From contig NZ_JAQMUE010000044.1 in the NCBI RefSeq assembly GCF_028330985.1, positions 1 to 64,000 on the forward strand: a DNA stretch of 64,000 nt. The letters run 5' to 3'. Below, one piece after another: positions 26,174-49,591 of this stretch. This DNA is from Roseofilum reptotaenium CS-1145 (GTDB lineage Bacteria; Cyanobacteriota; Cyanobacteriia; Cyanobacteriales; Desertifilaceae). The position numbers and the translations under genes are program-made. How positions within the stretch are numbered: the first letter of the stretch is position 1; each line of letters starts with the position of its first letter. A model generated the notes under the pieces. It searched no databases and was not told the origin of the DNA. It was given only the letters and a program-made list of their open reading frames with translations.

Positions 26174-27391
26174 TTAGCGGTGTTCTGTATTCAGTTTACC
26201 TTCTACCCATCGACTGGCAGCCGACATGGCATAACAGAATACCCAAAAGAGAACTCCAACAAATAGATATACCTCTGAAAAGCGCCCCAGAAATTTGGGG
26301 TTCGCTAAAATCGAGTTACTAATTCCTAATAATTCTACCAAGCCGGTAATCGCCAACAGGGTCGTATCTTGAAATAGGCTAATAAATTGACCCACCATAG
26401 CTGGAATCACAGCTTTCAGGGCTTGGGGGAGAACAATTAGAATCAAGGTTAAAGGAGTACTTAAACCTAGGGCCCGTGAGGCTTCCGCCTGTCCCTTGGG
26501 AATCGCTTGTAGACCTCCTCGCACATTTTCCGCTAAGTAAGCGGAGCTAAACAAGGTTAAGCCGACGATCGCCCGAATCACCCGATCGGGACGCATTCCT
26601 TCGGGGAGAAATAGGGGAATCATGACCTGGCCCATAAATAAAATAGTAATCAGGGGAACACCGCGGATAATTTCAATATAAGCAATACTGAGGGCTTTGA
26701 CCACGGGTAAGGAGCTACGTCTTCCTAAAGCAGCAATTAAACCGATGGGAAAACTTAAGGTAATGCCGACAATAGCCATGAGAACGGTGAGCAATAGGCC
26801 TTGCCATTCATTGGTTCCCACAGGGGTTAAACCCAGTCCTCCACCAATGAGCCACAGTCCGATTAAAAATACGCCAAACCAGCCAAAGGAAACCCATTTT
26901 CCGAGAGCTGGTTGAACGTTCCCGACTTGTTGGCCGATCCAAGCGCTACCGGCGATCGCCACCAAACACCCTACTAATAAGGCACGATAGACAATGGGAG
27001 TCGGAGTGATCACGCATCCTAGGGCAGCGATGCCTAAGCCGATGAGAATATTACGGCTAAAGAGGGTGAGCGATCGGACAATTACGCCCCAAGATAAGCC
27101 AGAAAAGACACTAATTAGAGCGACTAAAATCCATAAGCGCCAGTATTCTTCACTGGGATAGCGACCGACCATCAATAGGTGGAGATTTCGCGGGATCACA
27201 TCCCATTGAGCATCGGTGAATGACCAGGAGAGAAAATTATAACCTAGGGCGATTAATCCCCCTAAAATAATGAAAGTGATTAAACCGTTATACCAGGGAC
27301 TAAGCAAATTATTTTTAATCCAGTTTACCGGAGTATCGCGCATCTCCGGTGGCGGTGCCATATCGGTTAAGTTACTAGGTACAGAAGTCAT
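26174..27391 (-). CDS. natH: Amino-acid ABC transporter permease (NatH/AapM type)
   Basis: This 405-residue integral membrane protein belongs to the long AapM/BztC permease group, with an N-terminal extension of several helices before the conserved His/Glu/Gln permease core. The core shows ISLSFPIGLIAALGRRSS-like sequence, YIEIIRGVPLITILFMG and the EAA loop AEASRALGLSTPLTLILIVLPQALK. It pairs with the permease encoded just upstream to form the channel for acidic and neutral polar amino acids. The name follows the NatFGH system of Anabaena and Synechocystis. Confidence 0.85.
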   Translation of the reverse strand: MTSVPSNLTDMAPPPEMRDTPVNWIKNNLLSPWYNGLITFIILGGLIALGYNFLSWSFTDAQWDVIPRNLHLLMVGRYPSEEYWRLWILVALISVFSGLSWGVIVRSLTLFSRNILIGLGIAALGCVITPTPIVYRALLVGCLVAIAGSAWIGQQVGNVQPALGKWVSFGWFGVFLIGLWLIGGGLGLTPVGTNEWQGLLLTVLMAIVGITLSFPIGLIAALGRRSSLPVVKALSIAYIEIIRGVPLITILFMGQVMIPLFLPEGMRPDRVIRAIVGLTLFSSAYLAENVRGGLQAIPKGQAEASRALGLSTPLTLILIVLPQALKAVIPAMVGQFISLFQDTTLLAITGLVELLGISNSILANPKFLGRFSEVYLFVGVLFWVFCYAMSAASRWVEGKLNTEHR

Positions 27392-27469
27392 GTTAATGGA
27401 TAATTAATTTTTGATTTCTTCCTGCTTTATGTTGGCAATCGTCGATCTCCCTCTCTCCCTATCCTCAAA

Positions 27470-28639
27470 TCATCTCTCTTGTAGTTGCACCACGCGGTTG
27501 ATTTGGTTCATTCCTAAAGAAATGATCAAATTCATCAGCAAATAAGTGACCATGATAATGAGCATCACTTCTACGGGTCGCCCGCTTTGGTTGTAGGTTG
27601 TATTGGCTACATTGTAGATTTCCGCGTAGGCGATCGCCGCTCCCAAACTGGAGTTTTTAGCCAAGTTCATGTACTGACTACTTAAGGGGGGAATAATCAC
27701 TCGTAGAGCTTGGGGAAATACCACCAAACGCATCATTAAACCCGACTGCAAACCCAGGGCACGCGCGGCTTCCCATTGTCCTTTGGCTACAGCTTGAATC
27801 CCGGCTCGGACAATTTCGGCAATGAAGGCAGCCGTATACAACACTAAGCCTGTCAGCAAGGCGGCGAATTCTCCAGTCAGGCGCAACCCTCCGGTAATCT
27901 GACCTAGCTCAATTTCCGTCGGTTTTTCCCATCCAAAGGCAACTGTAATAATCAGTAGGGCAACCATGCCAATAATCCACAAGGCCGTTAACTGGGGTTT
28001 TCCAGAACTTCCCCGTTCCACCATGGACTTAATCCGTATTTTCCACAGGACAACCGCTGCGATCGCCAATCCAATCAACACACTGCACCAAATCGCTAGA
28101 GACCAACCCATCTTTGGCCAAGGGAGAAACACCCCTCGGTTACTCAAGAACGCGAGTCCCATCACCTCTATACGATCTGTGGGTCTGGGCAACTTAGAAA
28201 AAACGGCCCGATACCAAAAAAACAACTGTAAGAGCAGGGGCACATTGCGGATCAACTCCACATAAACTTCGCTTCCCTTTCGCAGTAACCAATTATTAGA
28301 AAAACTGGCAACTCCCACGGCAATTCCCACTAATGTTGTGAGGATAATGCCAGAAATAATGATCCGTAGGGTATTGACCAACCCAGCTAATAAAACCCGG
28401 CCATAGCTGTCTCTGGCTGGATCGTAAGGAATGATACTTTCTCCAATGGCAAAGGAAGCTTGGGTATCCAAAAAATCAAACCCGAACTCTATGCCCGCTC
28501 GTTGGAGGTTATTGGAGACATTATAGGTTAATAGACTAATAACAGAAATAACGATCGCGATCGCCAAAACTTGGAGCGCGACTCGCCAAAATCGATCATC
28601 ACGCCACAAAGGAATCGTATGCTCATTTGCCGAGGTCAT
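27470..28639 (-). CDS. natG: Amino-acid ABC transporter permease (NatG/AapQ type)
   Basis: This 389-residue permease has a split first region: TLRIIISGIILTTLVGIAVGVASF early, then a long loop, then the EAA loop GQWEAARALGLQSGLMMRLVVFPQALRVIIPPL. A VELIRNVPLLLQLFFWYRAV motif marks the polar amino-acid family. The long internal loop is typical of AapQ/BztB. It lies between the binding protein and the second permease in one transcription direction with small gaps, so the four genes probably form an operon. Confidence 0.85.
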   Translation of the reverse strand: MTSANEHTIPLWRDDRFWRVALQVLAIAIVISVISLLTYNVSNNLQRAGIEFGFDFLDTQASFAIGESIIPYDPARDSYGRVLLAGLVNTLRIIISGIILTTLVGIAVGVASFSNNWLLRKGSEVYVELIRNVPLLLQLFFWYRAVFSKLPRPTDRIEVMGLAFLSNRGVFLPWPKMGWSLAIWCSVLIGLAIAAVVLWKIRIKSMVERGSSGKPQLTALWIIGMVALLIITVAFGWEKPTEIELGQITGGLRLTGEFAALLTGLVLYTAAFIAEIVRAGIQAVAKGQWEAARALGLQSGLMMRLVVFPQALRVIIPPLSSQYMNLAKNSSLGAAIAYAEIYNVANTTYNQSGRPVEVMLIIMVTYLLMNLIISLGMNQINRVVQLQER

Positions 28640-28727
28640 AACAAGAACAGATTAAATGGGAGAACTTAAGACTCGTCACCCATGATCGCATCACAGGTGA
28701 CGGCTAACTGTTTACCGATAACTAAAT

Positions 28728-29804
28728 TTATCGGAAAGGAGGAGAATAGAGCAATCCTCCACGATTCCAAAGGTCATTTTGACCCCGATCTAACTGAAAT
28801 TGAGATTCCTTACCCAAATTGCGCTCGTAAACTTCACCGTAGTTCCCAACGGACGAAATCACATTAACCATGAAATCATTATCGAGTTCTAAGCCTGTTC
28901 CCAAATCACCTTCAACGCCCAAGAAACGGCGAATGGTGGGGTCTTCACTTCCTTTGCTTTGTTCGACATTGGCTTGAGTAATTCCCAACTCTTCTGCTTC
29001 AATCAAACCGTAGGTTACCCATTTAACCACGTCAAACCAGGTAGAATCATTATTAAGGGTTACAGGGCCGAGGGGTTCTTTCGACAGGGTGACCTCCAAC
29101 AGGATATGCTCCTCTGGATTCGGTAAGGTACTGCGACGAGCAATCAACTGCGATTTATCTGAAGTCATTCCTTCGCAGCGTTCTTCTGCATAGGCTGCAT
29201 AAGCTGGGTCAGCCTGTTGGAAGGTTACGGTTTCAAAAGTAACTCCTGCTTCCCGCATATTATCGGTTAAGTTCAGCTCGGTAGTCGTTCCCGCTTCTAC
29301 GCAAACGGCTTTACCTTCAAAATCTTCCAGGGAGGTGATATCACTATCTTGACGCACCATCATGCCTTGTCCATCATAGAATGTGGTTGGTGCAAATTCT
29401 AGACCAACGGTCGTATCTCGGCTGGTTGTCCAAGTCGTGTTTCGAGAAAGCATATCCACTTCACCACCCGCTAGGGCAGTAAAGCGTTCTGTAGAATCAA
29501 GGTTCCGATATTCTACTGCATCTGGATCGCCCAAGACAGCGGCAGCTACAGCTTTACAAACATCCACATCAATTCCTGAATATTCTCCGGTTTCATCCAC
29601 AAAGCTAAATCCAGGAATACCACCATCTACCCCACAGATTAGGGTTCCGCGATTTTTCACGACATCCAAACGACTTTGGGATGCCGAGTCTGAAGACTCT
29701 CCATCTCCTCCTCCATCAGCGTTATCAGACGGGGGAGGGGCGCAAGCTGCCAAGGGGAGAGCTAGCAATAGAACCGACATTAATAAAGATTGCCACTTAG
29801 CCAT
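28728..29804 (-). CDS. natF: Amino-acid ABC transporter substrate-binding lipoprotein (NatF/AapJ type)
   Basis: This is the binding protein for the NatGH importer. From ATG 29804 the product has a lipoprotein signal peptide with lipobox LAAC and a Ser/Gly/Asp-rich linker. The bacterial extracellular solute-binding domain follows, with LICGVDGGIPGFSFVDETGEYSGIDVDVCK (strand plus ligand loop) and VDMLSRNTTWTTSRD. Length (358) matches AapJ/BztA. The frame opens at a GTG at 29825, but that start would put a charged stretch before the signal peptide. Leader sequence upstream can form a hairpin. Confidence 0.88.
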   Translation of the reverse strand: MAKWQSLLMSVLLLALPLAACAPPPSDNADGGGDGESSDSASQSRLDVVKNRGTLICGVDGGIPGFSFVDETGEYSGIDVDVCKAVAAAVLGDPDAVEYRNLDSTERFTALAGGEVDMLSRNTTWTTSRDTTVGLEFAPTTFYDGQGMMVRQDSDITSLEDFEGKAVCVEAGTTTELNLTDNMREAGVTFETVTFQQADPAYAAYAEERCEGMTSDKSQLIARRSTLPNPEEHILLEVTLSKEPLGPVTLNNDSTWFDVVKWVTYGLIEAEELGITQANVEQSKGSEDPTIRRFLGVEGDLGTGLELDNDFMVNVISSVGNYGEVYERNLGKESQFQLDRGQNDLWNRGGLLYSPPFR

Positions 29805-29840
29805 ATGTAAAGGGTTTCTCCTCACTGATAGACAGTCATC

Positions 29841-29873
29841 TTGAAGCAGCCACTTTGCTTAGAGTGGCTTCAA
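29841..29873 (-). promoter_or_regulatory. Hairpin in the natF leader
   Basis: TTGAAGCAGCCACT at 29841-29854 pairs with AGTGGCTTCAA at 29863-29873, leaving a two-base bulge. It lies about 40 bases upstream of the natF start and would be in its 5' leader. On the plus strand the stem is followed by GTTTTCTT, so it also resembles a terminator, but no plus-strand gene ends here. A role in attenuation is only a guess. Confidence 0.3.
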
Positions 29874-30061
29874 GTTTTCTTAAATTTTATCTTTAAGATA
29901 TTAGCAGCATCTGCTAGATTTGGTATCAGCAGGAGAAATTTTTGCGTGTTCTAGAACACCTCTTCAGGCGATCGCCGTTTGATCGCCAGCCTAAGTTCTG
30001 CCTGATTATTGAGGCGCTGTCACCAGGAGAACCGTGTTAAAGCGGGACTTTAAGCTATTCC

Positions 30062-30292
30062 TTATGGCAAGAGTTCGGGGGACAGGCGCTCTTGAGCTAA
30101 ATCCCGAATCAGGGCACAACGGGATTCTATATAGTGAGAGAGTAAATCTGCTTCTTCTCCATTGAGCGATCGCTCTTGAGCCATATTACCCAATAGCCAT
30201 TGTACCAGACTCGCGTCATCAAGTCTCAATAACCGTTGAGGCTGAGTCGTTTCAATCAGTGACCAGAGCTGACGTAGCAGATGGGGAGTCAT
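30062..30292 (-). CDS. Small conserved-type protein of unknown function
   Basis: This 76-residue, mainly helical, acidic protein (MTPHLLRQLWSLIETTQPQR ... LSPELLP) contains LVQWLLGNMAQERSLNGEEADLL. A strong AAGGAGG ribosome binding site about seven bases before the ATG supports real expression. No family name is recognised, though similar short proteins occur in other cyanobacteria. It is monocistronic. Confidence 0.65.
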   Translation of the reverse strand: MTPHLLRQLWSLIETTQPQRLLRLDDASLVQWLLGNMAQERSLNGEEADLLSHYIESRCALIRDLAQERLSPELLP

Positions 30293-30719
30293 AATGATGC
30301 CTCCTTAAGGATTTCTTTATAATCATACCTACTTTAAACCTATAACTCACCGGTTTGACACAAGATCCCATCAAAGGTAGTGAACCTTAACAAAATGATT
30401 CATAACTTGACACTCCCATGAGTCCGAAGGTTTAACTGTTAAGATCGAGTTTACACATCATAATTCTGAGGATACATTAAGACTCGCGGGCAATGACCCC
30501 ACTAATTAACCATAATGCTATACAGCGCTTGGTGCTGTGGTGGGAAGGGGCATATGGGGATGGGAAAATAGGAAGAGTCAACAACAGAATTGGCTGCGTT
30601 TTTAGCGCTTCTAGTTAGGATTACAAACCCTTATTCATGTAGTTCATAGCACAGCAAAGATAAATGCTGCTATACTAGTGACTATAAGTACTGTAACAAT
30701 CCGTAAATACCATTGTTTA
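30293..30719. other. Intergenic region upstream of the first kinase
   Basis: This gap of 427 bases lies between divergent genes. TATACT at 30671-30676 could be a -10 box for the kinase gene. No well-spaced -35 box is seen. AACAACAGAATTGGCTGC near 30580 resembles AACAACAGATTTGATGGC near 35800, downstream of the second kinase, as if both mark the edges of a duplicated segment. No gene is seen. Confidence 0.35.
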
Positions 30720-32735
30720 ATGATCTCGACTAAAACCGCCTCTAGATTTTGGAGAAAAAGTTTATTTGTTAGAACTTACTCAAAATTTCCATTACAGCAA
30801 AAAATCAGTGTTCCATTTGTTTGTACCTTCTTAGTCCTATGGATTTCGGGAACAGTTAGTATTGGTTATTACTTTTTGAAATACTTGGAGAGAAGGCAAC
30901 TTCTAGAAGTAGATAGTATATCTGCATTGATGGTAAAACAATTCCAAAATGAAACCGAAGAACTACGTGTAGAAGCCAAACTTATAGTTGAAACAGAAGA
31001 TATTCGTAAAGGAGTGGAAAACTTCAACGAAGATCTGTTACTACAATATTTACTGCCCTTAAAATTTTTATTAGAAGTCGATCTAATTCAAGTCATCGAT
31101 ATTCAAAAAGAAACCTTAATCAACTTCAAGATAAATGAGATTAGCAACGCCAAAGTCGATCGTGAAGTTGCTATTTCACAAGCCATAAGTGGAGCAAGTA
31201 TTTCCACAATAGTCAGTGCAAAAGACAAAGCCAATAATACTGTATCACCAGTTTTGATTGGGACGGCACCTATCAAGTCGAATCAAGGGATTATTGGTGG
31301 CGTAATTCTTGGGCGCATTATAAACTTTGATTTCCTGAGTGAAATAGCTCAAAAAAACCAGGTATCAATAGTTATCTTCCAAGACCATAAAATTGTGGCT
31401 TCGAGTTTACCAGAAGTCAAGAAATTTGTCTGGCTACCACCGCCTGAAAATTCCCTGAGTAATTTTGAGGAATCGATCGTAAAAATTGGCGATCGCACTT
31501 ATTTAGGAACAACCGTTAGTCTCCCAGGAATTTACCAGTCTCAATTGCAATTAGTGATCATTTCTTCTCTAGAGGGTCTAGAAAAGACCCAAACAGTTTT
31601 TTTTATTCGTCTATTTTTGTTTTCGTTGGTGGGATTGACTGTCGCAATAATTGTGGGTTATTTTGTCTCTAAATTAATCGTTTTTCGGATTACTTTCATG
31701 ACTGAAGTAACTCAAAAAATTGCTTATCAGAACTTATGGGTTCAGTTGCCTGTCTATTATAATGATGAGTTAGATCGATTGGCTCATTCTTTTAACATCA
31801 TGTCTAATAAGTTACAAGAAAAAGAAGAGAATATGGAGAACAAACTAAAAACAAAAGTAGAGCAATTGGAAGAAACATTGCAAGAACTTCACTTGACTCA
31901 AGCTCAACTGATTCAATCTGAGAAAATGTCTAGTTTAGGGCAAATGATCGCTGGAATAGCCCATGAATTTAATAATCCAGTCAACTTTATTTATGCCAAT
32001 ATTCAACCGGCTATTGATTATGTAGAGGATTTGCTTGATGTCATAAGTGTCTATCGAGACGACTGTCCCGAATCTACTCAAACTATCTCCGAAACTCACT
32101 TGGATATAGATCTTGATTTTGTCGTCAAGGATTTTCGCAGTTTATTAACTTCAATTAAAAGTGGAGCAGAACGGATTAGTACAATTGTCAGAAGTTTACG
32201 AACGTTTTCTCGGTTAGATGAATCAGGGGTTAAGCTGATCAATATCAATGAAAATCTAGAGTCGACGCTGTTAATTTTGCAACACAGAATTCAGGAGACT
32301 ATGCAAGCGGGAACCATTCCTAAAAGAGAAATAAAAATTATTAAAGACTACAAAAGATCCCCCTGGCTAACCTGCGATCCAGGACAATTAAATCAGGTAT
32401 TTTTGAATTTAATTAATAATGCGATCGATGCTTTGGACGATCTAAGATTAGATACAGCAAATTCTAACATTCCTCAAATTGTGTTCAAAATAGACTGCAC
32501 CGATCTCTCGTCAGTTCAAATCACAATTTCGGATAATGGTTGTGGCATCAGTGAAGAAGTTCAGGATAAGATATTTGATCCCTTTTTTACCACCAAACCC
32601 ATCGGAAGTGGAACGGGTTTGGGATTATCAATTAGTTATTCCATCATCGTCGATCGCTGTGGAGGAACCTTGAAGTGTCATTCTACTCCAGGAGTGGGAA
32701 CTGAGTTTATCATTGAACTACCGCTAGAGGAGTAA
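30720..32735 (+). CDS. Sensor histidine kinase, first of a paralogous pair
   Basis: This 671-residue membrane kinase starts at ATG 30720, fixed by alignment with its paralogue at 33754. Features in order: a transmembrane helix near 30-50 (FVCTFLVLWISGTVSIGYYF), an extracytoplasmic domain to about 290, and a second helix (FIRLFLFSLVGLTVAIIVGYFVS). HAMP and a coiled coil follow, then the phosphoacceptor motif GIAHEFNNPVNFIYAN (His415) and the ATPase boxes NQVFLNLINNAIDAL, SDNGCGIS and GSGTGLGLSISYSII. HEFNNP-type kinases are a common cyanobacterial class. No response regulator or receiver domain is nearby. The next gene is a PstS-like binding protein, suggesting ligand delivery to the sensor domain. 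Confidence 0.9.
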   Translation: MISTKTASRFWRKSLFVRTYSKFPLQQKISVPFVCTFLVLWISGTVSIGYYFLKYLERRQLLEVDSISALMVKQFQNETEELRVEAKLIVETEDIRKGVENFNEDLLLQYLLPLKFLLEVDLIQVIDIQKETLINFKINEISNAKVDREVAISQAISGASISTIVSAKDKANNTVSPVLIGTAPIKSNQGIIGGVILGRIINFDFLSEIAQKNQVSIVIFQDHKIVASSLPEVKKFVWLPPPENSLSNFEESIVKIGDRTYLGTTVSLPGIYQSQLQLVIISSLEGLEKTQTVFFIRLFLFSLVGLTVAIIVGYFVSKLIVFRITFMTEVTQKIAYQNLWVQLPVYYNDELDRLAHSFNIMSNKLQEKEENMENKLKTKVEQLEETLQELHLTQAQLIQSEKMSSLGQMIAGIAHEFNNPVNFIYANIQPAIDYVEDLLDVISVYRDDCPESTQTISETHLDIDLDFVVKDFRSLLTSIKSGAERISTIVRSLRTFSRLDESGVKLININENLESTLLILQHRIQETMQAGTIPKREIKIIKDYKRSPWLTCDPGQLNQVFLNLINNAIDALDDLRLDTANSNIPQIVFKIDCTDLSSVQITISDNGCGISEEVQDKIFDPFFTTKPIGSGTGLGLSISYSIIVDRCGGTLKCHSTPGVGTEFIIELPLEE

Positions 32736-32816
32736 TATAGTCTTGTGTGCTAGGGAATAGGGGATGCACAAGGTGCTGTATCTTATAGTGGTTAGTCAGA
32801 CAAAAGGAGGTATCGG

Positions 32817-33656
32817 ATGAAACGAAAGAATGCCAAGATAGGATGGATCGGACTCTTAGCCGGAGCCATGTTGATCGGCTGTACTGCTGGCGATCGCTCT
32901 TCATCTTCCCAGAGTACTATCACAATTGGCGGATCGTCAGAAGCTTATCCCATGTTAGAACTGTTGGCAGATGCTTACGATCGGGAGAATGTTGAGATTG
33001 TCTTTATGTCCAGTAGCCAAAGTAGTGGAGGTCTAAGTGGGGTGCGAGATAACATTTTGGATATTGGGGCAATTAGTATACCAGTCACTGCCATAGAAAA
33101 AACCGAAAATCTTCAATATATACCGTTGGTTCGCAATGCCGTAGTCTTGATAGTCAACGAACAAGTTCAAGGACTCGACACTTTAAACACTGAGGCAGTT
33201 CAAAATATCTACAGGGGTGGGATTACTAACTGGAAAGAATTGGGCGATATCGATGGCGACATTATCCTCGTTGATATACCAGAAGATGAAACAGAAAAGC
33301 AACTTTTACGAGAACATTATTTAGGGCAAGACCTGACGATTACTCCCCAAGCAGTTTTATTTGAAGATGATGATGAAATTGTGGAGGCAGTAAGTATAAC
33401 TCCTTATAGTATCGGACTGATCGCCTACTCCGAAGAACTCGAAGACTTTTCAGTAAAGAGCCTTGCTCTAGATGGAGTTGCTCCTACCCTAGAGAATATT
33501 CAGAATGAGCAATATAAGATGGTTCAAACGATTGGTATTGTTGCCTTGGATCAACTTAAACCGACAACTGAAGATTTCCTTAATTTTATCTCCACTCCAG
33601 AAGCGCAAAGTATACTGGAGTCGAATGGCTATATCTTAGCCGATCCCAAATTCTAA
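32817..33656 (+). CDS. PstS-like periplasmic binding lipoprotein
   Basis: This 279-residue lipoprotein has a basic start (MKRKNAKIG), a hydrophobic segment ending in LIGC (lipobox) and a Ser-rich linker. The type II binding-protein fold of the phosphate family follows: TITIGGSSEAYPMLELLADAY, SSQSSGGLSGVRDNILDIGAISI, VVLIVNEQ and NIYRGGITNWKELGD. The S-S-Q-S-S-G-G loop lies where PstS contacts its anion. It has an AAAGGAGG ribosome binding site. It is not next to pstCAB but between two membrane kinases, so a signalling role is more likely than uptake. The ligand is unknown and need not be phosphate. Confidence 0.88.
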   Translation: MKRKNAKIGWIGLLAGAMLIGCTAGDRSSSSQSTITIGGSSEAYPMLELLADAYDRENVEIVFMSSSQSSGGLSGVRDNILDIGAISIPVTAIEKTENLQYIPLVRNAVVLIVNEQVQGLDTLNTEAVQNIYRGGITNWKELGDIDGDIILVDIPEDETEKQLLREHYLGQDLTITPQAVLFEDDDEIVEAVSITPYSIGLIAYSEELEDFSVKSLALDGVAPTLENIQNEQYKMVQTIGIVALDQLKPTTEDFLNFISTPEAQSILESNGYILADPKF

Positions 33657-33753
33657 TCTATAGAACCCATTTGGGATCTCTGACTAAATCAACCCTGTTC
33701 CCCAGAACAAAAGGCTTGAATCTACCTCATAAGAGCGGAAACTACTGCATTGA

Positions 33754-35778
33754 ATGATTGCCCGTGAACCCCCCCCTAACTTTTGGGTCAAAACTCTACT
33801 GTGTAGAACCTACTCAAAGTTACCCTTACAACAAAAAATCAGTATTCCCTTTGCTTTTGTGTTCTTAGGACTATGGCTTTTGGGGACAGTTAGCATTGGT
33901 TATTACTTTTTAAAACACTTAGAGAGACGGCAACTCAGAGAAGTTGAAAGTGTAGCCGCTTTGGTTGTACAACAATTCCAAAATAAAACTGAAACACTGC
34001 GTTTAAATGCCACAGTGACAGTTGAATCAGCAAATATTCTCGAAGGATTGGAAAATGCCCACGAAATTTCATTGTTACAACGTTTATTACCCTTAAAGCT
34101 TTTGTTGGATCTCGATCTGGTTCAAGTCATTGATATTCAAGGTCAATTATTAGTGGATTTGAAACTCAATAGGATTAGTCACTCTAAAATTAATCATGAA
34201 GTTGCGATTTCACAGGTCATGAGTGGAGTGAGTTTTTCCACGATCGTCGATACAGAAAATAAGGTGAATCCTTCGGCTTCCGTTTTAATTGCAACTGCAC
34301 CTATTAAATTGCATCAGGGAATTGTTGGCGGTGTGATTATTGGGCGTATTATAAATTCTAAATTCTTGAGTGAAATTTCCCAAGGAACAAATACATCAAT
34401 AGTGATATGTAAAAACAATAAAGTCATTGCGTCTAGTTTGCCCGAAGCAGAACAGTTTTCCTGGCGACCTCCTCCGGAAACTCCCCGGAATACTTTCTCA
34501 GAATCAGTGATCGAGCTTGGAGATCGATCTTACTTAGGAAAAACGGTTTCTATCATTGAAATGAATCAGTCCCAATTGCAATTGGTTGTTCTTTCTTCTC
34601 TACATGCTCTCGAAAAGGCAAAACAGAATTTTTTAATTGGACTGGTGCTATTTTCTGTTGTGGGATCGGTAATTGCAATCCTTGTCGGTTATCTTCTCTC
34701 TGGATTAATGGTCACTCGGATTAATTCCGTAACTCAAGCGACTGAAAAACTGGCCAATGATAACTTATGGGTTAAGTTACCTGTCCTTTATAACGATGAG
34801 TTAGATCGGCTGGCTAAAGCCTTTAATCGGATGGCTAAAAAATTAAAAGATAGAGATGAGGCTTTAAAAATAAAAGTCGAACAATTGGAAGAAACTCTGC
34901 AAAAACTATACTTCACCCAATCCCAATTAATTCAATCCGAAAAAATGTCTGGTTTGGGTCAAATGATTGCTGGTATTGCCCATGAGTTTAATAATCCAGT
35001 AAATTTTATTTATGCTAATATTGAACCGGCCATTCATTATGTAGATGACTTATTATATTTGCTCGATCTGTATAAAGAGGAATATCCCAATCCTCCTGCA
35101 AGTATTGCTGATACTCTAGAGGATATAGACTTTGATTTTTTGATTCAAGACTTTCATGATTTATTAACCTCAATTAAATCAGGAGCTGAACGGATTAGTT
35201 CAATTGTTCGAGGTTTGCGAACATTTTCTCGCTTAGATCAATCCGGAATTAAGCTAGTAGATGTCCATGAAAATCTAGAAGCAACTTTGTTAGTGGTGCA
35301 ACATAGACTTCAAGACAATATTCAAGCAAAAACAAATTCTACAAAAGCCATTCAAATTATCAAACAATATGGAACATTACCTTTAGTTACGTGCGATCCA
35401 AGGGAATTAAATCAGGTGTTTTTGAATGCGATAAATAATGCCATTGATGCTTTAGAGGAGTTGAGATCGGATGTAGAAAATTCCAAAAATCCTCAAATTG
35501 TTTTAAAAACAGAATGGTGCGATCGCTCTTCAGTCAAAATTACAATTTCGGATAATGGTTGTGGGATGAGTGAGGAGGTTAAGGGTAAGATATTCGATCC
35601 CTTTTTTACGACAAAACCTGTTGGTAGTGGAACCGGTTTGGGCTTGTCTATAAATTATTCTATTATTGTGGATCACTGTAGAGGAAAATTGAGATGTCAT
35701 TCTATTCCAGGAGAAGGAACTGACTTAATTATTGAGCTACCGTTAGAGAAAAACGTCATACAGAACTTTGCGCTGTGA
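33754..35778 (+). CDS. Sensor histidine kinase, second of a paralogous pair
   Basis: This 674-residue paralogue of the kinase at 30720 is colinear over its full length (for example YSKLPLQQKISIPF, TVSIGYYFLKHLERRQLREV, ATAPIKLHQGIVGGVIIGRII). The phosphoacceptor is His410 in GIAHEFNNPVNFIYAN, and the ATPase boxes NQVFLNAINNAIDAL and SDNGCGMSEEV are intact. The cytoplasmic part is more alike than the extracytoplasmic part, as expected if the two kinases sense different states or ligands. The N-terminal tail carries a PPPNF segment absent from the first copy. It follows the binding-protein gene by 97 bases in the same direction. Confidence 0.9.
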   Translation: MIAREPPPNFWVKTLLCRTYSKLPLQQKISIPFAFVFLGLWLLGTVSIGYYFLKHLERRQLREVESVAALVVQQFQNKTETLRLNATVTVESANILEGLENAHEISLLQRLLPLKLLLDLDLVQVIDIQGQLLVDLKLNRISHSKINHEVAISQVMSGVSFSTIVDTENKVNPSASVLIATAPIKLHQGIVGGVIIGRIINSKFLSEISQGTNTSIVICKNNKVIASSLPEAEQFSWRPPPETPRNTFSESVIELGDRSYLGKTVSIIEMNQSQLQLVVLSSLHALEKAKQNFLIGLVLFSVVGSVIAILVGYLLSGLMVTRINSVTQATEKLANDNLWVKLPVLYNDELDRLAKAFNRMAKKLKDRDEALKIKVEQLEETLQKLYFTQSQLIQSEKMSGLGQMIAGIAHEFNNPVNFIYANIEPAIHYVDDLLYLLDLYKEEYPNPPASIADTLEDIDFDFLIQDFHDLLTSIKSGAERISSIVRGLRTFSRLDQSGIKLVDVHENLEATLLVVQHRLQDNIQAKTNSTKAIQIIKQYGTLPLVTCDPRELNQVFLNAINNAIDALEELRSDVENSKNPQIVLKTEWCDRSSVKITISDNGCGMSEEVKGKIFDPFFTTKPVGSGTGLGLSINYSIIVDHCRGKLRCHSIPGEGTDLIIELPLEKNVIQNFAL

Positions 35779-35958
35779 TGAGGAGATAGAGGGAGCAAAC
35801 AACAGATTTGATGGCACTTTTATCGCACTTTGCACTCTAGCCATAGTTTGTATTGTTTAGGCTCTAAGCCTTCAATTGTTACTTCATAGAAGAGAGCATT
35901 GCAATATGTTTTTTATCGATAACTTCTATGCAAAAATTGCACTAGTAGTAAAGTTTTC

Positions 35959-35972
35959 GTAACTTAGGTTAC
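35959..35972. promoter_or_regulatory. Small inverted repeat before the 94-residue gene
   Basis: GTAAC and GTTAC flank TTAG in GTAACTTAGGTTAC about 80 bases upstream of the ATG at 36051. Such a symmetric site could be a regulator's binding site. No consensus is matched. Confidence 0.25.
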
Positions 35973-36050
35973 AGTTTTTTTCTGTTTTTCTGTAATGAGA
36001 TTGAACAGCGCTACAGTGAGGTTGGCGAGAGTTTACCCAGGAGTTGAACC

Positions 36051-36335
36051 ATGAGCGTTCATGAATATCACCCTCTTAATGTCCATTTAAAAAATCACTC
36101 TGGAAGTCGCTCAGAAATGGTTCTGGCAATTATTTTCGGATCGTTTGTGCTGGGATTTATCCCCATTGCTTTATTTTCAGATCTTTCAGTAACAACGACT
36201 CTGATACCCACAGAAGCTCAACTCTGGAGTTCTTTAGCAGAAAAACAGACTCCAATTTCTCTCCACATGCCATCGACAGAACGTATGATACCGACAGAAG
36301 CTCAACTTTGGAGTTCTTTAGGAGAGAAATATTAG
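36051..36335 (+). CDS. Small membrane protein with a duplicated C-terminal motif
   Basis: This 94-residue protein has a soluble N-terminus (MSVHEYHPLNVHLKNHSGSR), one transmembrane helix (VLAIIFGSFVLGFIPIALF) and a tail in which IPTEAQLWSSLxEK occurs twice, 29 residues apart. The DNA of the two motifs is nearly identical, so the tail arose by recent duplication. An AGGAG site precedes ATG 36051. No family is recognised. It lies between the kinase pair and the convergent glutaminase gene. Confidence 0.6.
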   Translation: MSVHEYHPLNVHLKNHSGSRSEMVLAIIFGSFVLGFIPIALFSDLSVTTTLIPTEAQLWSSLAEKQTPISLHMPSTERMIPTEAQLWSSLGEKY

Positions 36336-36370
36336 AAAAAGAGGCCAATTTTTGGCTAGAGTTTAGGGTT

Positions 36371-37270
36371 TTAATCGTACAAATAAGTGGCTATTCGTTT
36401 TAATAATGCCATGCCCACAACAGAATTTCCCATAGAATCAAGAAGGGGGCTATAAATGGCGATCGCCCCCTGCTGGGGAACTAAGGATAATAATACTCCA
36501 CTCACTCCTGACTTTGTCGGTAATCCCACTAAAGAAGCAAATTCTGCTGAGTATTCATATAATCCACAGGTTTGCATTAACTCTGTCACCCAGAATTGAT
36601 GCTCTGACTGGATTTTACCTTGCGGATTAACCAATCCTAGTCCCAATTGAACCAAATATTCAAGACTGGATGATAAACAACAGGCCTGTTGATAAGTATC
36701 CAATGCAACTGATTCAGGACTGCCTAAATAACCCGATTGTGCCAGGATTTGGGTTAAATTCTGATTGATTTGATTCGGTAAAGATTCTACAGACGCTAAA
36801 AGTTGCCGATCTACAAATAACTCAGTTTGACCATAATCATTGAGCCAATTACGGAATCTTTCAAATTTTTCGATACTGGTATATCCGGGCAAATAGGAAC
36901 AGAGGGCGATCGCCCCACTATTGATCATCGGATTGCGAGGAAATCCCTGGTCTGCTTGTAACTGTTCGACCGAGTTATAAGGGTAATCTGAGGGGAGATT
37001 ACCGACAATGCCCTTGATTTTCTCTCTTCCTAACTGTTCTAAACAATACAGCAAAACAAAGGGCTTAATCACACTCATCAACGGTACATCATGTTCCCCC
37101 CATCCATCCCCTGGATCGTGCAAACTTTGAATATAAATCCCCCTGTCTCGCGGATCAACCTTGGCTAATTTAGGGATATAAGTCGGTAAACGTCCTGACA
37201 CATTCAACGCTTCAATTTCGGTTAACCACTGCTCTACAGTAGATCGGGTGATACTTTTTAAATCTCTCAT
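36371..37270 (-). CDS. glsA: Glutaminase
   Basis: This serine-dependent glutaminase hydrolyses glutamine to glutamate and ammonia. The fold is that of class A beta-lactamases: the catalytic SxxK motif is MSVIKPF (near residue 68 from ATG 37270), followed by NPMINSGAI, a tyrosine-containing YSAEFASLVGLPTKSGVSG, and ending with GNSVVGMALL. The start at ATG 37270 has an AGGA site; the TTG at 37285 is a frame extension. Length (299) is close to the usual 300-310. It lies head to head with the chorismate-lyase-like gene. Confidence 0.93.
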   Translation of the reverse strand: MRDLKSITRSTVEQWLTEIEALNVSGRLPTYIPKLAKVDPRDRGIYIQSLHDPGDGWGEHDVPLMSVIKPFVLLYCLEQLGREKIKGIVGNLPSDYPYNSVEQLQADQGFPRNPMINSGAIALCSYLPGYTSIEKFERFRNWLNDYGQTELFVDRQLLASVESLPNQINQNLTQILAQSGYLGSPESVALDTYQQACCLSSSLEYLVQLGLGLVNPQGKIQSEHQFWVTELMQTCGLYEYSAEFASLVGLPTKSGVSGVLLSLVPQQGAIAIYSPLLDSMGNSVVGMALLKRIATYLYD

Positions 37271-37340
37271 AGTCAATCCTGACAAGCGATTGCCATTCGT
37301 GCCTATTGCTAGAATGCATTCCCTAGCTTACCGCCTTAAC

Positions 37341-37375
37341 GGGTTACCCATACTCATTCCCCATTCCCTGCCCAT
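37341..37375. repeat. Degenerate heptamer tract
   Basis: GGGTTACCCATACTCATTCC and the following CCATTCCCTGCCC belong to the same CCCATTA/TTCCCTA repeat family seen throughout the window. The tract lies in the divergent gap between glutaminase and the chorismate-lyase-like gene. Confidence 0.5.
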
Positions 37376-37420
37376 AGCGTTATCATAAAACTTAAGAAAA
37401 GTTAAGTTATGTGAAGACCC

Positions 37421-38020
37421 TTGACTGTAAGCGCCCAATCCCAAACCCCAGTATCAACGACTTGGCATCGCCTGCACCCCCTCTGGCAAGGTGATGAAAC
37501 AGAGATCCAAACTGGACTCCCCCATGAACAACTCTCTCCTGCTTGGCAAATTCTTTTACTTGGGGATGGTTCGCCCACGCGTCACTTGCAATTGTTAACC
37601 CGCGAACCAACGGAAGTCGATGTGATTGATATGTCCCCAATTGGCATGAATCGCGATCGCGCTCCGGGTCAGATTTCAGCAATTCCAGGGCCCAGATTAA
37701 GGCGACAGGTTTGGTTGAGAACTGCATCAGGACAACGGTTAGCCTATGCGACCTCTTGGTGGGAAGCCAGTCATGTCGATGATTATTTACAAAACCGCTC
37801 TTTACCCATCTGGGCTAGTTTAGCGCAGTTGCGAACCGAGTTGTATCGAGATATTCAAGGTTTGTATTATGGCCATTCCCAAGCCTTAGAAGAAGCCTTT
37901 GAGCAACCGGGGCCCTTTTGGGGTCGCCATTATCTATTTTGGCATCATAAACGGCCGTTTACCTTGATTTATGAGGTATTTTCCCCTTATTTGATTCAGT
38001 ACTTAGGGCCAACCGGATAA
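37421..38020 (+). CDS. Chorismate-lyase-like protein (DUF98 type)
   Basis: This 199-residue protein of the chorismate pyruvate-lyase fold shows WQILLLGDGSPTRHLQLLTR (active-site arginine region), VWLRTASGQRLAYATSWW and the late FWGRHYLFWHHKRPFTLIYEVFSP. In cyanobacteria such proteins (for example Sll1797) make 4-hydroxybenzoate from chorismate for plastoquinone. The frame has only a TTG start at 37421 directly after an in-frame stop; no ATG or GTG occurs near the N-terminus. It is followed by the deacetylase with a 12-base gap. Confidence 0.82.
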   Translation: MTVSAQSQTPVSTTWHRLHPLWQGDETEIQTGLPHEQLSPAWQILLLGDGSPTRHLQLLTREPTEVDVIDMSPIGMNRDRAPGQISAIPGPRLRRQVWLRTASGQRLAYATSWWEASHVDDYLQNRSLPIWASLAQLRTELYRDIQGLYYGHSQALEEAFEQPGPFWGRHYLFWHHKRPFTLIYEVFSPYLIQYLGPTG

Positions 38021-43608: not shown

Positions 43609-44214
43609 TCAAACTCGGCGCAAATTCAAAACAAAACCGGGTAAGATTTCTTCACCGGATAATTCGGTTGGATTCGACAATTTTTCTGCCTCTAAACCAA
43701 CTCGATACACTTCCACCATTCGATTTTGGGGATCGATTAACCAACCGAGTTTTGCTCCATTGTCGATATACTCTTGCATTTTCTCTTGCAGGGATTTTAG
43801 GGTATCCGACTTTGAGCGCAATTCCACCACAAAATCTGGGCAAATATTGGGGAATGTTCCCTTTTGCTCATCCGTCAGTGCATCCCAGCGCTCTTGACTT
43901 ATCCAGGCAGCATCGGGAGAGAGATTTGCGCCATTGGGTAAGATGAATCCGGTAGAAGAGTCAAATGCTTCTCCTTGTTGATATTCTTCGTACCAGCGAT
44001 GCAGTTGTCCAATAATGCTGAAATTACGTTTTCCGGTTTCCCAACCTGTGGGTGGATTCACAATTAGTTCTCCTTGTGCAGTTCTTTCCAGTCGTAATTC
44101 TCGATTGCTAGCAGCTAGAGCTTCAAACTGTTCTTGCGTGACATAGAGCTTCAGAGTTTTGGGTAATGTCAGCAAGAGAGTTTCTATTTCGGGTTTTACT
44201 GGTGTCTGTACCAT
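43609..44214 (-). CDS. Uma2 family protein (DUF820), copy 1
   Basis: This 201-residue member of the Uma2 family has a restriction-endonuclease-like fold abundant in cyanobacteria, usually in many copies and without a settled function. Visible marks are LERTAQGELIVNPPTGWETG, a G-x-x-F-D-S-S-T-G-F block, LSPDAAWISQERW, the core FVVELRSKSDTLKSLQEKM and GAKLGWLIDPQNRMVEVYR. The D-(x)n-E-L-R residues fit the nuclease-fold active site. The product is nearly identical to copies 2 and 3 (44276 and 48980). Start MVQTPVKPEIETLL at ATG 44214. Confidence 0.9.
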   Translation of the reverse strand: MVQTPVKPEIETLLLTLPKTLKLYVTQEQFEALAASNRELRLERTAQGELIVNPPTGWETGKRNFSIIGQLHRWYEEYQQGEAFDSSTGFILPNGANLSPDAAWISQERWDALTDEQKGTFPNICPDFVVELRSKSDTLKSLQEKMQEYIDNGAKLGWLIDPQNRMVEVYRVGLEAEKLSNPTELSGEEILPGFVLNLRRV

Positions 44215-44275: not shown

Positions 44276-44890
44276 CTAACCCCAAACTCGGCGCAAACTC
44301 AAAACAAAACCGGGTAAGACTTCTTCACCGGATAATTTGGTTGGATTCGACAATTTTTCTACCTCTAAACCAACTCGATACACTTCCACCACTCGATTTT
44401 GGGGATCGATTAACCAACCGAGTTTTGCTCCATTATCAATATACTCTTGCATTTTCTCTTGCAGGGATTTTAGGGTATCTGACTTTGAGCGTAATTCCAC
44501 CACAAAATCGGGGCAAATATGGGGGAATGTTCCCTTTTGCTCATCCGTCAGTGCATCCCAACGCTCTTGACTTATCCAAGCAGCATCGGGAGAGAGATTT
44601 GCGCCATTGGGTAAGATGAATCCGGTAGAAGAGTCAAATGCTTTCCCTAAATTGCCATTGTCTTCATACCAACGACCCAATTGTACAATAATGCTAAAGT
44701 TACGTTCTCCGGTTTCCCAACCTGTGGGTGGATTCACAATTAGTTCTCCTTGTGCAGTTCTTTCCAGTCGTAATTCTCGATTGCTAGCAGCTAGAGCTTC
44801 AAACTGTTCTTGCGTGACATAGAGCTTCAGGGTTTTGGGTAATGTCAGCAAGAGAGTTTCTATTTCGGGTTTGGCGGATGTCTGTACCAT
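44276..44890 (-). CDS. Uma2 family protein (DUF820), copy 2
   Basis: This 204-residue paralogue lies directly upstream of copy 1 in the same direction and is nearly identical to it in DNA. Differences cluster in the middle (RWYEDNGNLGKAFDS here). The frame extends to 45004, but ATG 44890 with an AGAGGTG site aligns with the start of the other copies (MVQTSAKPEIETLL). The nuclease-like core FVVELRSKSD is intact. Recent tandem duplication or gene conversion is implied. Confidence 0.9.
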   Translation of the reverse strand: MVQTSAKPEIETLLLTLPKTLKLYVTQEQFEALAASNRELRLERTAQGELIVNPPTGWETGERNFSIIVQLGRWYEDNGNLGKAFDSSTGFILPNGANLSPDAAWISQERWDALTDEQKGTFPHICPDFVVELRSKSDTLKSLQEKMQEYIDNGAKLGWLIDPQNRVVEVYRVGLEVEKLSNPTKLSGEEVLPGFVLSLRRVWG

Positions 44891-44993
44891 GTTCACCTCT
44901 GCGAGCCTATAATTCATTTTAGGCGATCGCGTACAGTAATGAGGACACCTTCTCATTTGCCAGTATAAAGCAGACAAAATAGAAGATAGTACT

Positions 44994-45656
44994 ATGAAAA
45001 TCAAGAAATATTGGTGGGTTTTGATTCTGATTCAGCTAACTCTTCTAGTTGTCATTATTAACGGACAATTCGCTATCTCTAGCGATCGCTCCTCTCTTTT
45101 TTACAGAGAAGATTTGCGGGAAATTCCTGCGGCTATTCCCATAACTCAGGAACATATTAGCCATGAAGGTTTAACGCTTAATTTATATGGTTCAGCGAAA
45201 GAAAGTCTGAAAAAAAGTCATCATGAGAATATAGTAAACGATCCTTATTACCTATGGTCGGGGAGATGCTCGAGCAACTGGGCAGTAACGTTTAGTCACC
45301 GGCAATTTCTGGTTGACTTGAGAGGAGTGGCTAAAATCAGGTGGCGAACCAAACAGTCGGGTTTCAGAAGATTGCACATTCTCTTAAAACTTGAGGATGG
45401 CACTTGGTTAGTGAGCGATCGCACTCAAGGAGCATCGGAAGACTGGAAAATCGGTGAATTTAACCTGATGGACTTAGAATGGTATGCACTCTCAATGGAG
45501 ACGATAACAGAAACAGATAAAGTCTCCTCTGTCGATCTTTCACGAGTCGATGAAATCGGAATTACAGATCTGATGAGAGGAGGCTCGAGTTCAGCGTCCT
45601 CTAGACTAGACTGGATCGAAGTCTATGGAAAACCGGTAGAACGCTTCAATTCTTAG
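44994..45656 (+). CDS. Secreted or membrane-anchored protein, possible beta-sandwich domain
   Basis: This 220-residue protein begins with a basic start and hydrophobic helix (MKIKKYWWVLILIQLTLLVV) that could be a signal anchor. A domain with LYGSAKESLKKSHHENI and WRTKQSGFRRLHILLKLEDGTWLVSD follows, and it ends in SRLDWIEVYGKPV. The closing D-W-I-E-V-Y-G strand is typical of galactose-binding-like or CIA30-like beta-sandwich domains; this is only a resemblance. It precedes the Tat-exported reductase by 71 bases in the same direction, so the two may act together outside the cytoplasm. Confidence 0.6.
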   Translation: MKIKKYWWVLILIQLTLLVVIINGQFAISSDRSSLFYREDLREIPAAIPITQEHISHEGLTLNLYGSAKESLKKSHHENIVNDPYYLWSGRCSSNWAVTFSHRQFLVDLRGVAKIRWRTKQSGFRRLHILLKLEDGTWLVSDRTQGASEDWKIGEFNLMDLEWYALSMETITETDKVSSVDLSRVDEIGITDLMRGGSSSASSRLDWIEVYGKPVERFNS

Positions 45657-48979: not shown

Positions 48980-49591
48980 CTAATCCCAGACTCGGCGCAA
49001 ATTCAAGACAAAATTGGGTAAAACTTCTTCACCGGATAATTCAGTTGGATTGGACAAAACTTCGACCTCTAAACCGACTCGATAAATTTCCACCGTTCGA
49101 TTTTGAAGATCGATTAACCAACCTAATCTTGCTCCATTTTCCATATATTCTTGCATTTTCTCTTGCAGTGATTTTAGGGTATCCGACTTTGAACGCAATT
49201 CCACCACAAAATCGGGGCAAATATTGGCGAATGTTCCCTTTTGCTCATCCGTCAGTGAATCCCAGCGCTCTTGACTTATCCAAGCAGCATCGGGAGAGAG
49301 ATTTGCGCCATTGGGTAAAATGAATCCGGTAGAAGAGTCAAATGCTTCTCCTTGCTGATTATCTTCATACCAACGACCCAATTGTACAATAATGCTGAAA
49401 TTACGTTTTCCGGTTTCCCAACCTGTGGGTGGATTCACAATCAATTCTCCTGTTGCAGTTCTTTCTAGTCGTAAGTCTCGATTACTGGCAGCTAGAGCTT
49501 CAAATTGTTCTTGCGTGACATAGAGCTTGAGGGTTGTCGGTAATGTCAGCAAGAGCGTTTCGGTTTCGGGTTTTACTGGTGTCTGTACCAT
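48980..49591 (-). CDS. Uma2 family protein (DUF820), copy 3
   Basis: This 203-residue third Uma2 paralogue is about 90 percent or more similar to copies 1 and 2 by eye, with differences such as ETETLLLTLPTTLKLYV and AKLG replaced by ARLG. The nuclease-like core FVVELRSKSDTLKSLQEKM is intact. It lies on the far side of the HEAT gene, so the Uma2 copies flank the block 44994-48937. Start ATG 49591, MVQTPVKPETETLL. Confidence 0.9.
   Translation of the reverse strand: MVQTPVKPETETLLLTLPTTLKLYVTQEQFEALAASNRDLRLERTATGELIVNPPTGWETGKRNFSIIVQLGRWYEDNQQGEAFDSSTGFILPNGANLSPDAAWISQERWDSLTDEQKGTFANICPDFVVELRSKSDTLKSLQEKMQEYMENGARLGWLIDLQNRTVEIYRVGLEVEVLSNPTELSGEEVLPNFVLNLRRVWD

What the first reader, a model, noticed from the sequence alone, without database searches (positions are those of the whole stretch)
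30720..35778. Kinase - binding lipoprotein - kinase module with duplicated kinases
Two full-length paralogous membrane kinases flank a PstS-like lipoprotein, all in one direction and with no transporter genes and no response regulator. The lipoprotein may present a bound ligand to the extracytoplasmic domains, with the two kinases reading different states or acting as a heterodimer. The sequences flanking the pair also look alike (near 30580 and 35800), suggesting duplication around the lipoprotein. I know of no described system with this plan.
Basis: partly seen in the sequence, partly recalled or inferred. Interest (0 to 1): 0.7.

Follow-up and report, generated by a model that had tools for sequence, protein, structure and literature searches.

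The report
Cyanobacterial lipoprotein–kinase sensing pair, kinase doubled
A bacterial signalling pair, made of a surface lipoprotein shaped like a phosphate catcher and a membrane kinase, recurs in dozens of cyanobacteria without phosphate-transporter genes beside it; in this genome the kinase is present twice, and what the pair senses is unknown.

Summary
In detail: kinase (30720-32735), PstS-like lipoprotein (32817-33656), kinase (33754-35778), one strand, no pst transporter and no response-regulator match within 6 kb. The two-kinase plan is not conserved. It occurs only in the window among 59 loci examined; three same-genus relatives with the lipoprotein have one kinase. What recurs is the pair lipoprotein then kinase: 50 of 59 loci counting the window, and 53 of 55 lipoprotein-bearing genomes also hold the sensor domain. 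No other neighbour is shared by more than 9 loci. Lipoprotein divergence tracks the sensor domain (r 0.82), not the catalytic domain (r 0.39). The sensor is a dCache-type fold close to LuxQ, but equally to DctB. The SGT triplet of PstS is absent in 59 of 59, so phosphate is an unlikely ligand. Best reading: a LuxP-LuxQ-like receptor built on another binding-protein class, not found described in our searches, with an old diverged second kinase: HK1 and HK2 split before this strain parted from its nearest sampled relative. Docking, ligand, partner regulator and any heterodimer are untested. New variant of a known kind.

The parts
30720..32735 (+). HK1: membrane histidine kinase (dCache-type sensor, HAMP, HisKA, HATPase_c); second, diverged copy, seen beside the lipoprotein only in this genome; ORF can start at GTG 30678
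30456..32849 (.). block without a counterpart in place in same-genus genome G009; it carries HK1 and the first bases of the lipoprotein gene. Outside it the window aligns in order with G009 (96% upstream, 84% in the lipoprotein gene, 92% downstream); inside it HK1 aligns only to G009's single kinase gene (73%)
   Evidence: blastn of window 27001-38000 against L051
32817..33656 (+). PstS-like lipoprotein (PBP_like_2), lipobox Cys22, DIPEDETEK (family form DRPEDESAK) in place of the PstS SGT motif
33754..35778 (+). HK2: the recurrent partner kinase directly downstream of the lipoprotein (97-bp gap)

Best explanation
The lipoprotein and HK2 are one instance of a two-gene receptor that recurs across the order. 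Proposed working: the lipoprotein, tethered to a membrane by its N-terminal cysteine, binds a small ligand between its two lobes and docks, with or without ligand, on the dCache-type extracytoplasmic domain of the kinase; ligand-driven closing changes the dimer's HAMP and kinase state, as in LuxP-LuxQ, and phosphate goes to a response regulator encoded elsewhere. HK1 is an old sister of HK2 whose overall divergence from HK2 bears the mark of purifying selection; most likely it reads the same lipoprotein, as a second homodimer or as a heterodimer with HK2. Shown here: gene content, recurrence of the pair, absence of pst genes beside it, co-divergence of lipoprotein with sensor, fold class of the sensor, loss of the SGT motif, age and rarity of HK1. 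Inferred: docking, ligand gating, use of the lipoprotein by HK1, regulator in trans.
For: Lipoprotein followed on the same strand by the sensor gene within 700 bp in 48 of 58 fetched relatives, 49 with L111 at 720 bp, 50 of 59 with the window; gaps of 20 bp or less, overlaps included, in 30 of the 48, and 4-bp overlaps in L054, L090, L091, L107 and L127. 53 of 55 lipoprotein genomes have the sensor against 13 of 333 without it (my tally). Only these two gene clusters recur (58 and 54 loci; next 9, generic ABC ATPases). pstC/A near 0 of 59. Co-divergence over 37 pairs: lipoprotein-sensor r 0.82, lipoprotein-catalytic 0.39, partial 0.79 against 0.16, 0 of 1000 permutations. Sensor model: VIA Z 15.4 to LuxQ 2hje, rmsd 3.0 over 189 residues, tied with DctB 15.5; LuxQ chains from LuxP complexes at Foldseek ranks 7, 9 and 11; weak profile match to LuxQ 3c30, E 0.008. 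Lipobox Cys in 59 of 59. HK1-HK2 dN/dS 0.26.
Against: No complex was predicted or tested. The sensor model is moderate (mean pLDDT 63, 5 sequences); DctB, CitA and chemoreceptor domains, direct ligand binders as far as I recall, score about as high as LuxQ, and the profile match to LuxQ has no stretch that passes on its own. Related sensors exist with no intact lipoprotein beside them: 20 loci fetched, the lipoprotein profile hit in 1, a 124-aa remnant. In 3 Okeania loci the pair is divergent and the sensor gene is only 390 aa, ending after HAMP in the one scanned. In L089 and L131 no sensor lay in the stretch by BLAST (a weak profile hit in L131), though G187 and G097 have sensors on other contigs. 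Of the 48 adjacent sensor genes, 3 are short or split (L105, L123, L134). Five loci (L100, L102, L104, L108, L124) have an ABC ATPase gene just upstream on the same strand. Co-divergence does not fully separate contact from joint inheritance. HK1 keeps 27 of 34 conserved sensor-HAMP columns, HK2 31, so HK1 may have left the lipoprotein.
Confidence: 0.68

Rival explanations
1. HK1 no longer uses the lipoprotein. It senses something directly, or through another binding protein, and merely sits beside the pair after insertion, or after loss in relatives. (Compatible with the pair reading for HK2.)
For: Sensors of the same family without the lipoprotein exist (20 loci). HK1 has a longer branch than HK2 from their common fork (0.37 against 0.14 + 0.074) and departs at 7 of 34 conserved sensor columns, HK2 at 3.
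Against: HK1 lies 81 bp upstream of the lipoprotein on the same strand, keeps most conserved sensor columns and all kinase boxes.
Confidence: 0.3
2. The dCache-type domain binds its ligand directly, and the lipoprotein is a scavenger or a co-regulated protein rather than the ligand carrier.
For: DctB and CitA, direct binders, match the sensor model as well as LuxQ does.
Against: Lipoprotein divergence tracks the sensor, not the catalytic domain; close spacing with 4-bp overlaps in five loci.
Confidence: 0.15
3. An ordinary PstS working with a distant PstCAB, its neighbour kinase being a phosphate sensor.
For: PstS-family profile match (TIGR02136, 116.1 bits against a cut-off of 206.6); the genome has pstSCAB-like clusters elsewhere (named by my reading).
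Against: SGT absent in 59 of 59 family rows, present in the 4 own paralogues looked at, of 6 other PF12849 matches; two of those clusters have their own PstS; profile scores show a gap between this family (E 1e-80 or better) and the next matches (E 4.5e-50 or worse).
Confidence: 0.06

Closest known systems
LuxP-LuxQ (autoinducer-2 receptor of Vibrio)
   Same: Periplasmic binding protein bound to the extracytoplasmic domain of a kinase; sensor fold match Z about 15; LuxP binds LuxQ with and without ligand (PMC6321045, passages)
   Different: LuxP is of another binding-protein class (recalled); here the binding protein is a PstS-class lipoprotein
AioX-AioS-AioR and orthologues
   Same: Binding protein plus kinase that sense rather than transport; AioX resembles PhnD (PMC5908839, passages and one section). 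A figure legend there marks some phosphate-binding proteins as involved in sensing, not transport; which ones was not seen
   Different: AioX is PhnD-like, not PBP_like_2; regulator and target enzyme genes are adjacent there, not here
NspS-MbaA (polyamine receptor)
   Same: nspS immediately upstream of mbaA; binding protein works on a membrane receptor (PMC8079147, passages)
   Different: Output is GGDEF/EAL, not a kinase; NspS is of another class (recalled). The Okeania pair beside an AAA_35-GGDEF gene is only superficially like it
PstS acting on the CtpL chemoreceptor of Pseudomonas aeruginosa
   Same: A PstS-class protein stimulates a sensory receptor (PMC6321045, passages)
   Different: That PstS is the phosphate-binding one of the cell; CtpL has a helical HBM domain, not dCache

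Membership tests
Phosphate-binding PstS of PstSCAB | PBP_like_2 / PstS fold family | tested here: met
   PF12849 93.7 bits over a cut-off of 27; best solved relatives by sequence are phosphate-binding proteins
Phosphate-binding PstS of PstSCAB | Phosphate-binding SGT motif (role recalled from E. coli PstS) | tested here: not met
   0 of 59 family rows; 4 of the 4 own PstS-like paralogues looked at have it
Phosphate-binding PstS of PstSCAB | pstC/pstA nearby | tested here: not met
   0 of 59 loci within 6 kb
Phosphate-binding PstS of PstSCAB | NCBI curated PstS cut-off | tested here: not met
   TIGR02136 116.1 against 206.6 bits; TIGR00975 33.7 against 205
LuxP-LuxQ | Two-lobed tandem PAS/Cache extracytoplasmic sensor | tested here: met
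   Z 15.4, rmsd 3.0, 189 aligned, on a model of pLDDT 63; tied with other Cache domains, so fold class only
LuxP-LuxQ | LuxP-class binding protein as partner | tested here: not met
   Partner matches PF12849 and, second, PF13531
LuxP-LuxQ | Physical complex of binding protein and sensor | not testable with these tools
   No complex prediction available
AioX-AioS-AioR | PhnD-like binding protein with adjacent kinase and regulator | tested here: not met
   PF12849, no PhnD-type match at E 0.001; no receiver-domain match within 6 kb in the window
HisKA-type membrane sensor kinase | HAMP, HisKA, HATPase_c with intact H, N, G boxes | tested here: met
   both kinases

The most novel reading that the evidence does not exclude
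One lipoprotein serves two kinases that diverged long ago, so that a single bound ligand is read by two homodimers and possibly a heterodimer with different outputs: a branched receptor built on a binding-protein family, confined in the samples searched to this order, that lost the phosphate motif and took a new, unknown ligand.
Probability: 0.35. Interest if true: 0.68.

Novelty: new variant of a known kind. Interest (0 to 1): 0.5.

Why it matters
A 2022 survey counts only about ten characterised cases of a binding protein acting on a sensor kinase (PMC9602780, passages). Here is a recurrent pair, in 55 of 388 sampled genomes of one order by the lipoprotein search, with a portable sensor half whose output part changes (plain kinase, kinase with receiver, HAMP-only). 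It gives testable partners for part of the large stock of unassigned cyanobacterial kinases, and this genome offers a natural test of one ligand carrier serving two kinases.

Tried and rejected
Similar flanks as a mark of duplication: tested and found weak. Recent tandem duplication of HK2: rejected, HK1+HK2 as sisters p-AU 1.9e-58. Where HK1 branches within the genus clade is open: HK1 with HK2+G009 has support 45/6, and the two alternatives have p-AU 0.516 and 0.354. Partner regulator: a REC-PAS-GGDEF from a relative gave 144 matches in the own genome, no clear orthologue, so not followed; receiver genes do stand beside some lipoprotein-free sensors (L199, L201, L204). Lipoprotein structure model: failed (pLDDT 42), not used. 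Promoter and terminator scan: no more hits than shuffles (16 against 16.4; 4 against 4.0), so whether the three genes form one operon is open. Plasmid search: 16 records, all under 60% identity, best E 1e-14, not followed. Phylum sample: of 386 genomes, the 14 matches at E 1e-80 or better are all in the own order; the one listed match outside the order (G550, 1e-42) is in the range of the other PstS-like matches. How many of the 386 lie outside the order was not printed, and at most 6 candidates a genome were scored.

Literature: (listings with starts of abstracts) showed no description of a PstS-class lipoprotein paired with a cyanobacterial kinase; most subscription papers are not in the library.
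Full report
What is there. On the + strand the window holds HK1 (30720-32735; the ORF reaches back to GTG 30678), an 81-bp gap, the lipoprotein gene (32817-33656), a 97-bp gap, and HK2 (33754-35778). Both kinases match HAMP, HisKA and HATPase_c; HK1 also matches dCache_3 below the curated cut-off (23 against 25.7 bits). H, N, G1 and G2 boxes are intact in both. The genome shows 128 matches to HK2, of which only HK1 (besides HK2 itself) aligns over nearly its whole length (1-666, 63%). The host is a cyanobacterium by my reading of window genes (petC, petA); its name is not given.

The pair is the unit. With the lipoprotein as query, 55 of 388 genomes of the order have a match at E 1e-30 or better (at most 6 candidates a genome were scored). 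I fetched 58 loci. In 48 of 58 the sensor gene lies downstream on the same strand within 700 bp; L111 has it at 720 bp. Of the 48, 39 encode 640-740 aa, 6 more than 840 aa, and 3 are short or split (L105, L123, L134). The other 9 loci: L084-L086 divergent (the same Okeania contigs as L048-L050), L087 near a contig end, L088 next to an IS605-type transposase, L089 and L131 with no sensor by BLAST in the stretch (L131 has a weak profile hit), L117 6 kb off on the other strand, L137 with both genes cut short. Clustering of the neighbours gives the lipoprotein in 58 loci, the kinase cluster in 54 (this cluster may also hold kinases joined through their catalytic part), and nothing else in more than 9. 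pstC or pstA lies within 6 kb in 0 of 59; ABC ATPases of other kinds do in 7, in five of them (L100, L102, L104, L108, L124) upstream on the same strand. A receiver-domain match lies within 6 kb in 10 of 59, several being the hybrid kinases themselves. With the HK1 sensor as query 66 of 388 genomes match; 53 of the 55 lipoprotein genomes are among them, and 13 of the 333 others (my tally from the two tables; thresholds differ, 1e-30 and 1e-12).

Two kinases are a local matter. None of the 58 fetched loci has a second sensor kinase flanking the lipoprotein. In the genus, G009, G006 and G008 have one kinase; G005 and G007 have neither gene at the thresholds used. The window and G009 are 96% identical up to 30455, 84% in the lipoprotein gene from 32850 and 92% from 33693 on; 30456-32849 has no counterpart in place, and HK1 inside it aligns only to G009's one kinase gene at 73%. 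The tree puts HK1 inside the genus clade but outside HK2+G009, and HK1+HK2 as sisters is rejected, so the two split before this strain parted from G009. An old paralogue lost in relatives and a gene brought in from a related lineage cannot be told apart. HK1-HK2 dN/dS is 0.26, a pairwise figure that does not test HK1 alone. Synonymous divergence from G009 is 0.29 (HK2) and 0.40 (lipoprotein) but 0.06-0.15 in three flanking genes, which suggests exchange of the module between lineages. In G006 and G008 the pair sits between a 440-444-aa and an 809-814-aa gene, with two small ORFs besides in G006; in G005 the counterparts of these genes (78-80% and 89-92% identical) are adjacent, an empty site.

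What it may bind. Lipoprotein rows carry D-R-P-E-D-E-S-[AG]-K or variants where PstS has SGT: strict form 40 of 59, E-D kept in 58 of 59, SGT in 0 of 59, SGT in the 4 own PstS-like paralogues looked at, of 6 other PF12849 matches (alignment). That SGT holds phosphate is recalled from E. coli PstS. An acidic residue in its place argues against phosphate and, less surely, against any anion. Lipobox Cys 59 of 59.

How it may work. Lipoprotein distances follow sensor distances (r 0.82) far more than catalytic distances (0.39), over 37 pairs: the window's with HK2, and loci with a sensor gene of 640-740 aa, of which L091, L101 and L108 were dropped as near-duplicates. Output differs while the sensor stays: plain kinase in most; kinase with receiver in L110, L111 and L133 by Pfam and by length and receiver match in L112, L115, L129 and L136; HAMP-only in the Okeania gene scanned, beside an AAA_35-GGDEF gene (L049). 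LuxQ is the one among these that I know to bind a binding protein. With the recurrent pairing I therefore favour a LuxP-LuxQ-like mode; the fold alone does not decide.

Results against. Twenty loci with related sensors away from the lipoprotein were fetched (not every such match). None has an intact lipoprotein beside the sensor; L209 has a 124-aa remnant. L194-L197, L206-L208, L212 and L213 share a flavodoxin- or Feo-like neighbourhood (my naming from sequence), and L200 has a Peripla_BP_2 binding protein just upstream. So the sensor family can work without this lipoprotein, and HK1 could too: it departs at 7 of 34 columns that are at least 85% conserved in 49 fetched sensors (L117, not adjacent, among them), HK2 at 3.

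Novelty. Binding proteins that act on kinases in sensing, outside transport, are known (PMC6321045, PMC5908839: passages), and one figure legend there marks some phosphate-binding proteins as sensing ones (which was not seen). This PstS-class lipoprotein family with its motif and paired kinases was not found in the searches made.

Noticed in passing
L194-L197, L206-L208, L212, L213: Sensors of the same family without the lipoprotein sit near flavodoxin- and Feo-like genes (named by my reading), which hints at an iron-related branch; the CHASE4 domain of iron-sensitive IsmP is among the fold matches of the HK2 sensor.
   Followed up: partly
L200:3754-6990: A related sensor kinase follows a Peripla_BP_2 (PF01497) binding protein, a different binding-protein class.
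   Followed up: partly
L049:1227-4098 and L048, L050: Okeania: sensor gene of 390 aa, ending after HAMP in L049; in L049 and L050 a 546-aa gene (AAA_35-GGDEF in L049) follows on the same strand; the lipoprotein gene is divergent.
   Followed up: partly
L225:3834-7619: Same-genus G005 shows the empty site where G006 and G008 carry the lipoprotein-kinase pair.
   Followed up: yes
window 43609-44214, 44276-45004, 48980-49591: Three closely similar ORFs of about 200-240 aa (look like Uma2-type proteins, name recalled) within 6 kb.
   Followed up: no
window 36051-36335: 94-aa ORF downstream of HK2 with an internal repeat (PTEAQLWSSL twice), 98% identical in G009.
   Followed up: no
L137:8253-9579: Lipoprotein and kinase genes both shortened in G302: a decaying pair.
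   Followed up: no
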